A model generated the notes under the pieces. The model was not told the DNA's origin, made no database searches, and saw only the letters and a program-made list of their open reading frames with translations. From contig NW_024735516.1 of the NCBI RefSeq assembly GCF_018991925.1, positions 472,001 through 536,000 of the forward strand: DNA of 64,000 nt, written 5' to 3'. Both the position numbers and the translations under genes were made by a program. Shown here piece after piece: positions 28,901-34,900 of this stretch (positions within the stretch are counted from its first letter, which is position 1; each line of letters begins with the position of its first letter). The DNA comes from Homarus americanus (Eukaryota > Arthropoda > Malacostraca > Decapoda > Nephropidae).

Positions 28901-31900
28901 ATACCTATGTTCTAGTAAAAATAACATCTTAATTTTATGATGGTTGTACTTTTAGGTTTACAGTTTTTATCTTATATAATATCTCAGACTAAAGTTAGGA
29001 GATTATAATTTGCATTGCTGGAATCCTTGCAAGACAGCCAATAATTTGAATATAAACGTCATATATTTTGCTCAAGAGATAAAAATTGTTGTACATTAGT
29101 GTACAGTACTGTAGTACATTTTATAAAAAAGTTTTTCAACTGTATTTTTGGGTAGATTTACATAGATTTCTTAGTGCAAAGCTGGAGTGCACATGTACTA
29201 ATTTGATTACGGTACTAAAATTGTTTTGTCTAGTGCAAATTATAGCATGTTTATATTCAAATTAATCAGTATGTTACAAGAATCCCAGCTATGTTAATTA
29301 TATTCACCCAGGTCATTTCACTGGCTTTTTATAAGAGAGAAGCTTAGTCACCTAAGAACTGATAAATATACACGCGTTAGACCTGAGCCTGTGCCAACAG
29401 TCAAACGTACTACCTCCCCTCCCCCCACGCCTCCTCGCACCCTCTCTCTCCCCCATCTGCTGGCATTGCTGGAATCCTTGTAAAACAGTGAATAATTTTA
29501 ATATAAACGTCATGTATTTTGCACGAGATAAAAATTAATCACCTGTATCACATTACAGTAGTGATTTAAGAGTTAAAAGTGTATATGTATGTATATAGTA
29601 TCCCACATACACGTAAGTATAAATAAAAAGTTTGTGATGATCGGACAACGTCCATTTCGGTTAACGTCACGTTTCCAAGAACGTATCTAGGACGTTAACC
29701 GGCGCATGACTGTACTATACAGTACAGCTCCTCCCCGACTTAAGACCACCCGCACTTACGACCTGCCTCAGTCGTACCAAAATTTTGTCAAATTACGTAT
29801 TTTCGAGTCCCAACGTCAGTACTCAGAGAAAATTTTCATTTGCAATTCACTTTAAAATGGCTGGAAAGCCTAAAAGTGAGAGTTTTGTGGTGCTGAAAAG
29901 AAAAAGACACCTATTTTAGATTTTCTATGTATTATTTAAGCATTTTCGACTTACGACCATTTCGATTTACGACCTGGATTTGGGTCCCCAACCCTGTCGT
30001 AAGTCGGGGAGGAGCTGTACTTGGTTAAAACAAAGAATATACTGCCAAACACAATAATACTTCATCAGTCACAATGGTTGCTGTGCTCTTGAAGCTGACA
30101 GCTTAATTTGCAGAGAAGAAATCTTGTAACTAGTGTTATGCACATTATGTATATACTATTTGTAATATCCTTTCACTGTAGCTGGTACTGTACATCCATG
30201 GTCACTTTCACCACAGATTGTAAACGTCAGGTTTCAAAAGATTAATTCCATCAGGATTTATGCGGCACTTGTTTTAGAAATTCAACTGTAACTGAATACA
30301 GCATTTTGCTTGGTTTCATGGAGTTGTTTACCACTAACAAAAAATTACTATCACTGCTTAAATTACCAGTACAGTACTTACAAAGTTACCACAAAACTCA
30401 TTAGAAAACCTGTTTCAAAAACCAAATAAAACAAATTTGCCGAGGATTTGCATACCTGCATAGTGACCACAATGACGAGAATGGTCGCTACAACACTACC
30501 AAACGTCTGCTGGTCTGTCATGCTCCGCCCCTCCTGATCCATACCATTATAGTATGCCCCTGTGTCAACAATAGATTAGTTACACAATAATGTCTGCATA
30601 TTATATAATGTTACATTTTCCTTCCACTTTTTTAAGGAATATACAGTAATACATATTATTTAAAAATTCTACTCGAGTTTTACAAACAAAAATCATTCCA
30701 ACAAATCTGACAACAAAAATATAGTCATATGATAATAATCTACATTTAATTTTTAGTTACTAAATTAAATTTAATACAAGAATTAATTTTATTTTTGTCT
30801 TAATATATGTTGCTTCTTGTATGTAACTTATGCATTTCTGTGCTTATTTGAGCTATTCCTATATAAAAAGCAATAGATGGCACACCACACTAATGCATGA
30901 AATGTACAGATGTGCAGGTGAAAATGTGAGAACAACTATAAAAAGGTTTATGACACTAACCTGCTCAAATAAACATAAGTTCTCCCATGCAGTACTTACC
31001 AATGTAACAAACTCCTCTGAGTATAACTTACACTAACTGCTACTGCTGTGGCGGTAATATTTTCTGTTTATCTATGAAGGAACAGTATTTTCACCCAATA
31101 GTCCTGGTAATACATGGGGAATGGGAACACCATAGCAAAACATCTGTTAAAGTCGTTAAAGAATAATGATTGCAAATAAAGGTAGAGTTTGTTGGTCCTT
31201 ATTACAGACAGCCTATATCAAAGCAGGGAGTGGGAGGGGGAGATACATTATTTCTTGCCTATCTGGAAATACTTGAGTTGTCTGATGCTGCTGCACAATA
31301 GGTCTTCTTCACTTACCAAATGGTATGAAGAACAGGACACAAGAAGTGACAAATCCATGAACTGCAGACCTGAAGAATTCTCTCTTATTGAACAAAGCAT
31401 TCTTGAGGCCTGGAGTGTACAGCTTTGGGTATTTGATACTGTTCTTAGCATTAACGTCTTGTTCGAAGATACCCAGAGCCAGGACGGGCATTGACGTGTA
31501 GAAGAGGTTATACACCGATATAAACATGGGGTCAAACAGTGTCTGCGTTAGGGAGAGAAAAACAAAATACCTAATAGCGTGAGTGAAGAAAGCTTATACG
31601 GAGCTGCAGGTCACTTAACCCTGTGTGTGTGTATATACATTATGTGCCGTGACAAACACCCACAGCAAAAGTATGAGTAAACTCAAACAATGCCATCATT
31701 TATAAAACAATGATAACACAAAACCCAGGCAATAAATAAAAATTAAACATAAAAGGTTGCATCAATAACAAGGTGTTGTGATTATATAATGCTCACAGTC
31801 ACATCTAAAGTGAAAAACCTATAAATTGTCACACTGTGAAGACCTGTGATAACATTTACACTTCAATCATGCACACTTTAGATGACAGGTAAGTTGTTCT

Positions 31901-34900
31901 TAAACCAGATCATTGTAAACTTCAAATTATTTAAACTTTTACAATAAATAATTACTGTACAAGGATTTAGAGTGTTGCTTGTGCTAGGTAAACACATCAA
32001 TACTTGTGTAAACATCCATTTGACAGTGTCTTAGATTCCACACATAATTATGACTTAAATCAGCCATACTATCAAAGGCTGTAATAATAAGTATGTTCAT
32101 ATTCCCTTGAGTCTTCAGAGTCCATGAGCTCAGACCTAAATTATTGCCCACTAAAGCCACCTCTTGTTAAAAGTTGTTCATTGGTTTTAAAATATACTGT
32201 ACCTCATCAACATTCCAATTAGACTGATAGCAAAGTACAATACAATACAGCTCAATTTGTTTGAGACACAAACTGTACTTCAAGATATCAGTCTTAAAAG
32301 AAAAATCACTGGGAGAAGGGAAGTTTTATTAAAAAATAAAAAATAAAAACTGCATATATCATACAAAAATTATCCTTCACACTATGTACACTGGACCATG
32401 TATGTATTATGGAGAACGCTTATAACGGAATGTTTTATGATTCAAGGTGTGATTGCGAGACACTAATGAAGTTTGTCAAGTATAAGATTAATGTACTGTA
32501 TATTCACGATAACATGTATGAACCTTGAACATTTATTACTGAAGAACTTTTTGAAAGTAGGTGCTATAGGCCTGATATTTGTTAAGAGCAGTGTGGATAC
32601 AACACACTATATACTAAGCCTTTGGGACACAAAGAGAGAATGTGGTTGGCATTTGCCATTTACAGCTGGGTGGACTGAGAGTGCCCCAGAACTGAACCAG
32701 TGATCCTTGGAACAAGAAGCATAGGCTCTATTCATTTGGCCGGTTTAATACCAACAAAGCATGTTTTCTGCATGGCTTGACCGCAATCAAAGAAGATTTT
32801 TAACCCATTTTGAATACTAAATACCTGTACTGATGAGAGAGATATGTACTATATACACTTAAACCTGAACTAATGTATGTTAGGGGTCTGTACATCAGAT
32901 GAGAATGAACTCTGTGCACTGACTATATAAGAGAATAGATGAGTAAATTCACTGTAATCTCCTACTGAGGGAGAGAGAAACTTACTTGACATATAGAAAG
33001 ATATATTGTTCTGAAAGAAAAAATAACTGTTTTGCCAAGTGATTTCATTCTTAAATTTACCACACTTCAACAATAACCATTATACAGTACTCTAAGGCCT
33101 AAGCTGACCCACTTGGTACAGATTTAAATCTACTGTACTATCTTTGAACTACTTTTCTTAAATGCCCTTTGATGAAAATTAAACACCTAAGGAGATACTG
33201 ATCAAGACTCAGAGCCCATGGACTCGTAGCTGTATATAAACACGCTGAAGTGAGAGGTGACGGAGGTGGGGTGAACACTGCACAACTATACGTGACACAC
33301 GCTCACATACTGCCACACTCACCAAATGGGATGAATAATATGAGGCAGGAGGTTACCGCGCCATGTAAGGCGCTCCATAAAAATACACGTTTATTGAAAA
33401 AAAGATTGGAGTGACCAGGAGTGTAGAGTTTGGGAAAGCGACGACTATAGTAATCGTCAACATCTTGGTCCATGATGCCCAGACACAGTACAGGAAGTGA
33501 GGTATAGAAAAGATTGTAGGTTGATATAAAAAAAGGATCATACACAGTCTGAAACAGGAAACAAAAATAAAAGAAGACCTTAATTTTCGATAACAATCAT
33601 CACTTAGTACTGGGTGAATGAAGTATATCTGCCATAATGATACTCCTTAACCATACATCACATACCAATATTTTGGATCCTGTTTAACTATTCTTTCGTG
33701 TACCAAACACCTCGGTACTAGAGGTTTACTTAAGTTTCTCTATGATACTAATACTTTTTTTTAATCTCTTAACCTGTTTCCTAATCTACTGAAACCGCTT
33801 TTCCAACCTCCTTGCAGTTCACCTACCCGTGCACTGCTTCAGGGCCACCATGTGAACTTATGTGCAGTCCCGCGGTTTGTTTTAATGTGGTTACATCTAC
33901 CCTCACTCATATAACAAATGTTATCATTGTTAATCATAGAGTAACCTTGTAATCGCTGTGATACTTTGCTGTTTTGGAGAGAGTAAAACATTATTGTTCA
34001 GATTTTGCTCTGTTTTGGTGACTGTGAAGTGTTCAGTGTACAGTAACTCCGTAACTTTGAAAATGGCTAACAAGTGTCCTGCTGATTCTCCCGCCTCTGG
34101 GAAAGGCAAGGCTTTGAGGAAGAGAGTGTCTCTGGAGATGAAGTTAGACATTGTTAAGCAGCAGGCTTTGTTTTTATTAATGTGGTGAGTGTTGTTTAAT
34201 TTTGTATTTATTAGTATAGAATTGTTTTTTTCTGTGTTACATGTCTGTGCTAGACAGGCCAGGAATATATACCATTGAAATCCATGTTAAAAGGATCCTG
34301 ATTTATGTTAAGGTTCTCAGGAATGCAACCCTATTGTAAATAGTGGGTTACCTGTTATAGAAACTGAGAAACCTAATTACATTTATTAAAATGTTCAACA
34401 TACAGTATTAGCCATTTTTGTCAATGCACTTTCATAACCTGGTTATTCATAGATGTTATACTGTAAGGCATCTGCTAAAATGTAATTTGAAAATAAAATT
34501 GCTGAAGTTTGTTAGAAAATTACTGCAGACATATTAGATCCCACCAGCAAAGGATAAGCAACTACAAATAAGCACCGATAAAACTGGCAAACATACTGTG
34601 TATAACTGTATACTGTACAGATACTGTACTATGAATTAATATATATCTGCTTTTTAGTTTCTAATACTGATTATGGTTCCAATTACATGGACCATCCTGT
34701 ATATATTAACACACCTTAAATTTTTTCATGTTTAAGTTCAGAAGTTCAAGTTAGTATTACACTAAACTGTAGGCCCATAGACACACTATAAATATCTGTA
34801 CACACAAAAAAGTTCCAAAACCAGCATTGTCCCAATTTAAATCCTGACATGATCTCTTAAGACTACAAAATACACAGGGCTGCAGAGAGGCAAAATCTTA

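What the first reader, a model, noticed from the sequence alone, without database searches (positions are those of the whole stretch)
31317..33548. Duplicated, probably mutually exclusive exons swap M6-loop-M7 of an ATP8B-type flippase
Seen: two exons of exactly 226 nt with the same phases (0 in, 1 out), GT-AG sites and intact frames, in tandem, encoding homologous but distinct versions (about 65% identity) of the same protein segment. Known: M5-M6 in P4-ATPases line the lipid path. Inference: including both or skipping both breaks the frame, so one is chosen. This would give two flippases that differ in substrate handling, partner contact or regulation, with the strongest change in the M6-M7 loop. 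I do not know of a description of this in crustaceans.
Basis: partly seen in the sequence, partly recalled or inferred. Interest (0 to 1): 0.85.

Follow-up and report, generated by a model that had tools for sequence, protein, structure and literature searches.

The report
Swappable flippase exon pair in crustaceans
A crustacean lipid-flipping enzyme gene carries two different, long-conserved versions of one exon, of which the reading frame allows only one at a time, so the animal can probably build two forms of the enzyme that differ in one part of the membrane domain; whether both forms are really made has not been shown.

Summary
Exon A (33548-33323, minus) and exon B (31542-31317, minus) are both 226 nt, GT-AG, phase 0 in and 1 out, open, and 48/75 residues identical. 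They encode TM6, the cytosolic L6-7 loop and TM7 of an ATP8B-type P4-ATPase; the 14 other exon segments found are single. A alone or B alone keeps the frame; A+B stops after 3 codons, skipping both after 13. It is neither an assembly error nor a recent copy: A-like exons occur in the crayfish Cherax (71/75) and in unnamed contigs (53-69/75, ending sharply at the splice sites), and the isopod Armadillidium has an A-like piece then B. A window A/B sister pairing is rejected (AU p = 0.0002). Use of A and strict exclusivity are not proven: the 18 decapod-type long entries among the 120 listed hits carry B, none carries A; the Cherax model joins A to B. No docking/selector signal was found. Residues reported at the transport site are the same in both exons, so changed regulation (phosphoinositide pocket, CDC50 contact, loop coupling) seems likelier than changed substrate. 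Verdict: a new, old member of a known kind, tandem duplicated exon substitution, not found described for flippases in my searches.

The parts
33323..33548 (-). Exon A (first in transcription order), 226 nt, phase 0 in / 1 out, TM6 - L6-7 - TM7 version A
   Evidence: relatives
31317..31542 (-). Exon B (second), 226 nt, same phases, TM6 - L6-7 - TM7 version B
   Evidence: carried by the 18 decapod-type long entries listed
36702..36925 (-). Upstream constitutive exon (P domain end and TM5; donor CAG|GTAAAG), joined to A or B
30456..30559 (-). Downstream constitutive exon (L7-8 and TM8), phase 1 in
31543..33322 (-). Intron between A and B, 1780 nt; no pairing signal above shuffles
33549..36701 (-). 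Intron before A, 3153 nt (last 1200 nt used in the pairing test)
30560..31316 (-). Intron after B, 757 nt
54506..54668 (-). Constitutive exon, N domain; earliest exon of the gene found in the window
53232..53341 (-). Constitutive exon
48995..49186 (-). Constitutive exon
48208..48282 (-). Constitutive exon (limits from tblastn only)
47921..48023 (-). Constitutive exon
46905..47041 (-). Constitutive exon
42501..42649 (-). Constitutive exon (donor AG|GTAGTG read by eye)
39607..39783 (-). Constitutive exon (limits from tblastn only)
37808..37936 (-). Constitutive exon (GDGANDVSMIK)
26508..26639 (-). Constitutive exon after the TM8 exon
25913..26112 (-). Constitutive exon, TM10, with the residue aligned to ATP8B1 R1164
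22801..22995 (-). C-terminal exon with RSGYAFAHQEGFGRLITSGKIM (limits from tblastn only)

Best explanation
A and B are a pair of tandem duplicated, alternatively used exons of one ATP8B-type flippase gene, kept in malacostracan crustaceans since before decapods and isopods parted. The spliceosome joins the upstream exon to A or to B and on to the TM8 exon; products with both or neither hit an early stop and are lost, which enforces one-or-the-other at the protein level whatever the splicing control is. B is the common form; A is probably restricted to some tissue, stage or condition. Shown: gene structure, frame logic, conservation of both coding sequences, an old split. Inferred: use of A, mutual exclusivity in RNA, loss of the wrong products by nonsense-mediated decay. 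Functional guess, inferred: the swap leaves the transport-site residues alone and retunes regulation, because the cytosolic L6-7 loop (CDC50A N-tail contact in ATP8B1) and the start of TM7 (phosphoinositide pocket) are changed and lose a charged pair in A (E55 to V, R58 to W in exon numbering).
For: Equal length, phases, splice sites and 48/75 identity. Frame outcomes. Only this segment of 15 is doubled. At 23 comparable fourfold sites 17 differ, near saturation, while 64% of residues are kept. Exon A in Cherax 71/75, lgn158 69/75, lgn159 68/75, ena160 59/75, ena161 53/75; outside the exon identity falls at once to 7/15, 2/15, 3/10, 2/3 residues upstream and 5/20, 2/20, 3/20, 3/10 downstream in the last four. 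Armadillidium model P0003 has an A-like piece of 41 residues (28 match window A, 23 window B, 22 its own B) followed by B; placing that piece with its own B or inside the B group is rejected (AU p = 0.014 and 0.019). A clade UFBoot 82; window A and B as sisters rejected, AU p = 0.0002. Nine columns separate A from B fully in the 7 and 13 sequences I chose (six A sequences beyond position 41). R952, K957 and R1164 of ATP8B1 are conserved in constitutive exons; the position of R1032 is V in A, E in B.
Against: No long A protein of a decapod among 55 hits to A in the 410-1303 aa range (lengths 279-409 were covered by neither A search), while 18 decapod-type entries carry B. Entries one residue apart stay separate in this database, so clustering alone does not explain the gap, though it could in part. 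The only A-containing decapod gene model joins A directly to B. No docking/selector signal; a 1780-nt intron is too long for simple steric exclusion (recalled rule) and the donors are ordinary, so no mechanism of exclusion is identified. No RNA-seq could be examined. The functional guess rests on human ATP8B1 papers; B itself has E, not R, at the R1032 position, and the excess of change in the loop is not significant.
Confidence: 0.68

Rival explanations
1. A is a regulatory 'poison' exon: it is spliced together with B to give the stop after DTV, lowering flippase level by nonsense-mediated decay, and its protein is never used.
For: The Cherax model P0157 is exactly this product, ending FIPFDTV, and the window predicts the same end. 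No long decapod A protein found.
Against: A poison exon needs no conserved protein, yet A keeps 53-71 of 75 residues between sources, with an abrupt drop at the splice sites in the four genomic ones, and keeps the length and phase of B. The short last exon in P0157 may be a gene predictor's way to close a model: one published Cherax annotation used MAKER with SNAP and AUGUSTUS plus transcript hints, another combined AUGUSTUS, Genscan, transcripts and homology in EVM (passages); which produced the OTU49 model is not known.
Confidence: 0.15
2. A is a dying or silent duplicate exon; B alone is used.
For: B in the 18 decapod-type long entries listed, A in none. A departs from the plurality of 14 other arthropods at more of the 27 differing sites than B (B matches 16, A 9, neither 2; counted by eye).
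Against: Open frame, intact splice sites and strong protein conservation over an old split.
Confidence: 0.1
3. Assembly or annotation artefact: two gene copies or alleles merged.
For: None found; the genome-wide search that would count gene copies did not complete.
Against: Fourteen other exon segments are single in the window; the same A-B order occurs in Armadillidium and is implied in Cherax; 36% protein divergence is far beyond allelic.
Confidence: 0.02
4. The pair is real, but the swap changes which lipid is carried rather than regulation (a variant of the best explanation, not exclusive of it).
For: TM6 lies by the lipid path (PMC11460456 passages), and 8 of the first 30 positions differ.
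Against: N989 and T993 (transport site, PMC10657443 passage) are the same in A and B; in that paper the PC headgroup sits in a groove of TM1-4, outside this exon.
Confidence: 0.15

Closest known systems
Tandem duplicated exon substitution events / mutually exclusive exons (Dscam, muscle myosin, voltage-gated channels, plasma membrane Ca-ATPase family; PMC9741552 passages; others from listings)
   Same: Adjacent homologous exons, same length and phase, one-or-the-other by frame, old, in a membrane transporter.
   Different: The gene is a P4-type lipid flippase; 'ATP8' and 'ATP11' have no occurrence in the main text of that survey. RNA proof of exclusivity is missing here.
Plasma membrane Ca-ATPase (PMCA / mca-3) exon substitution
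   Different: A different P-type subfamily; which part of the protein is swapped there was not looked up.
NALCN channel alternative pore exons (PMC3557258 passages)
   Same: Duplicated exon that swaps a functional transmembrane part, retained or lost by lineage.
   Different: There the selectivity filter changes; here the reported transport-site residues do not.
ATP8B1-CDC50A flippase (PDB 8ox4 to 8oxc, 7py4)
   Same: Closest solved relative: 309 bits over 277 residues of the B form; the exon starts at T978.
   Different: Human ATP8B1 has R at position 1032; A has V and B has E.

Membership tests
ATP8B-type P4-ATPase | PhoLip_ATPase_C domain and best match to ATP8B1 among solved P4-ATPases | tested here: met
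   PF16212 in the relatives P0157 and P0005; window region with B: ATP8B1 309 bits, 6k7g 189 (ATP8A1 by recall), ATP11C 162
ATP8B-type P4-ATPase | DKTGT phosphorylation site and A-domain DGET | tested here: inconclusive
   No DKTG or GETN in the three minus-strand frames of the window, but P0005 aligns only from residue 420 on, so the part that would hold them lies beyond base 64000; P0005 has both
Mutually exclusive exon pair | Adjacent exons of similar length, homologous, same phase, compatible splice sites | tested here: met
   criteria as in PMC3923563 (passages)
Mutually exclusive exon pair | Both-included and both-skipped products are out of frame | tested here: met
Mutually exclusive exon pair | Transcripts carry exactly one of the two | tested here: inconclusive
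   B in 18 of 18 decapod-type long entries listed; no long decapod A; one Cherax model with A joined to B. No reads were available
Mutually exclusive exon pair | Exclusion mechanism (docking/selector pairing, steric, U2/U12); helpful, not strictly defining | tested here: inconclusive
   Duplex energies within the range of 10 shuffles, part of the first intron only; ordinary GT-AG donors; 1780-nt spacing. No related genomic DNA to test conservation

The most novel reading that the evidence does not exclude
Malacostracans keep a natural, splice-made TM6-L6-7-TM7 chimera of one flippase: form A has lost the charged pair E55/R58 at the mouth of the phosphoinositide pocket and has a rebuilt L6-7 loop, giving a second flippase with different phosphoinositide activation or CDC50 contact, switched by tissue or condition and preserved since before the isopod-decapod split.
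Probability: 0.35. Interest if true: 0.68.

Novelty: new member of a known kind. Interest (0 to 1): 0.52.

Why it matters
A review states that the roles of TM7-10 in P4-ATPases are not well understood and that TM7-10 chimeras between Drs2 and Dnf1 misfold (PMC11460456 passage). If both forms are made, crustaceans have long tested a folding-competent TM6-TM7 swap, and nine separating columns name residues to try. It would also show exon choice as a way to set flippase control.

Tried and rejected
Docking/selector pairing: best 60-nt duplexes between introns were -38.6, -34.9 and -37.5 kcal/mol; 10 shuffle pairs each gave means -36.5, -35.5, -32.5 and minima -42.7, -40.2, -38.8. Nothing beyond the shuffles (only the last 1200 nt of the first intron were used). 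Without related genomic DNA, conservation of such elements could not be tested.

Third copy of the exon: none in the window. Rfam: no match in the window. The bacterial promoter/terminator scan does not apply to an animal gene and is not used.

Dating the duplication more closely: unresolved. The ML tree puts A outside the B plus insect group, but monophyly of malacostracan A+B (AU p = 0.060) and of a wider crustacean set (p = 0.342) is not rejected; 75 columns are few. The tree used 58 of 248 segments, chosen by me for taxon spread. P0156 was dropped for short coverage before the A/B count. The 9 segments closer to A include the window's own A and three entries (P0059 mollusc, P0171 unnamed, P0123 leafhopper) with a margin of 1-3 points; the hand-cut Armadillidium piece was not scored there. 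P0171 (50/75 to A, 49/75 to B) is left unassigned.

Clustering of the database as the whole reason for missing A isoforms: weakened, since entries one residue apart are listed separately. A 'most changed loop' claim: not significant. Literature for flippase exon swaps: seven of the ten paper searches bear on this. I saw titles and starts of abstracts, with some lists capped (8 of 11, 15 of 26, 10 of 11); none of those shown was about alternative TM6-TM7 exons in a P4-ATPase. One search was badly phrased and tells nothing. A 2013 paper on the Drosophila exome that I recall was not read.
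Full report
What was checked. The finding names two exons on the minus strand. Both are there, 226 nt each at 33548-33323 (A) and 31542-31317 (B), flanked by AG and GT, entered in phase 0 and left in phase 1. Their products are 48/75 identical without a gap. A six-frame search of the window finds no third copy.

The gene. The upstream exon ends TM5 and the downstream exon starts at L7-8. With exon B, the region matches ATP8B1 best among solved structures, 309 bits, ahead of 6k7g (189; ATP8A1 by recall) and ATP11C (162). 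P0005, a protein from an unnamed source, maps over residues 420-1179 in 15 segments from 54671 to 22801; only the segment in question is doubled. The N-terminal half is not in the window. The nearest named relatives are decapods: B is 74/75 identical to unnamed P0005, 90.7-93.3% identical to nine of the ten named decapod entries listed, and 89.3% to the tenth, Petrolisthes cinctipes P0019. A is 71/75 identical to Cherax quadricarinatus. A crayfish or a relative is likely, but the species is not known.

Frame logic. Translating all four outcomes gives an open frame with A or with B alone. A plus B reads FIPF-DTV-stop at the junction; neither reads 13 codons into the next exon and stops. Several junctions follow, so decay of both wrong products is expected by the general rule (recalled).

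Is it old and functional? Both exons are near saturation at fourfold sites relative to each other (17 of 23 differ) but keep 64% of residues. A-like exons come from other sources: Cherax P0157 71/75, lgn158 69/75, lgn159 68/75, ena160 59/75, ena161 53/75. The last four look genomic, since the reading runs into what should be intron, and there the likeness to the window drops at once: upstream 7/15, 2/15, 3/10 and 2/3, downstream 5/20, 2/20, 3/20 and 3/10. Their organisms are not named. The isopod Armadillidium vulgare model P0003 contains an A-like piece of 41 residues, cut short by the gene predictor, followed by a full B-like one. The piece matches window A at 28 of 41, window B at 23 and its own B at 22; trees that put it with its own B or inside the B group are rejected (AU p = 0.014, 0.019). 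In a tree of 58 segments the seven A sequences group (UFBoot 82), and making window A and B sisters is rejected at AU p = 0.0002. So the split most likely predates the parting of isopods and decapods; whether it lies within Malacostraca, in crustaceans or deeper is not settled (p = 0.060 and 0.342 for the two monophyly constraints).

Is A used? This is the weak point. Among the 120 listed of 1345 hits, 18 long entries are of decapod type (10 named, 8 unnamed) and all 18 carry B; the krill, amphipod and isopod entries also have a B-like segment. A search with A alone returned 55 proteins in the 410-1303 aa range; apart from Armadillidium none looks like an A form, with 57-72% identity over the whole exon. 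Lengths of 279-409 aa were covered by neither A search. Because entries one residue apart stay separate, this is real though not final evidence that A is scarce in the data. The only decapod gene model with A, P0157, joins the upstream exon to A and then A to B, giving precisely the DTV end. It could be a real transcript or a predictor's forced ending; two published Cherax annotations combined ab initio and transcript evidence (PMC7069360 and PMC10106460, passages), and I do not know which one this model is from.

What changes in the protein. Exon position 1 is T978 of ATP8B1. Identity is lowest in the cytosolic L6-7 loop, 13/25, against 22/30 before and 13/20 after it, but that difference is not significant (Fisher p = 0.14). 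N989 and T993, whose backbones meet the water at the transport site (PMC10657443, passages), are the same in A and B. R1032, the most frequent PI(3,4,5)P3 contact in simulations (same paper, section 9 read), aligns to V in five of six A sequences (Q in one), to E in 11 of 13 B sequences (A and Q in the others) and to E in all 14 other arthropods compared; position 58 is W or Y in the six A and R in 12 of 13 B. The other two main contacts, R952 and R1164, sit in constitutive exons and are conserved (my count along the alignment). The CDC50A N-tail touches the TM6-7 loop (PMC9045818, passage). Hence the guess that the swap tunes regulation. It is a guess: B lacks the human arginine too, and I did not search for phosphoinositide measurements on arthropod flippases.

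How the choice could be made. No pairing between introns goes beyond shuffles. Donor sites are CAG|GTAAAG upstream, TTG|GTGAGT for A and TTG|GTAAGT for B, all ordinary. The simplest account is regulated choice by splicing factors, with frame loss removing errors.

Place among known things. [quoted passage not shown] The main text of that survey has no 'ATP8' or 'ATP11', nor has the human survey PMC5740500; their supplements were not seen. Seven paper searches showed no P4-ATPase case among the titles and abstract starts listed. That is absence from an open-licence library, not proof that it is unpublished.

The loop claim was weakened, the Armadillidium test was added, one exon end was corrected to 42501, and two membership rows were set to inconclusive.

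Noticed in passing
P0003 residues about 556-677 (Armadillidium vulgare, public entry): The public gene model joins part of an A-like segment to a full B-like segment in one protein, so it carries TM6 twice; probably an annotation error caused by this exon pair.
   Followed up: partly
window 61188-61736 (-): Open stretch of 182 aa with a likely membrane helix (by eye) and no Pfam match, upstream of the first flippase exon found.
   Followed up: partly
window 8855-10946 (-): Reverse transcriptase and endonuclease pieces of a retroelement (PF00078, PF14529/PF03372).
   Followed up: no
window 767-1612 (-): C2H2 zinc-finger open stretch with an 84-nt internal repeat.
   Followed up: no
window 47514-47776: 30-nt minisatellite, 8.8 copies, inside a flippase intron; open in several frames.
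   Followed up: no
window 28563-28784: (AT)n microsatellite of about 220 nt in a flippase intron.
   Followed up: no
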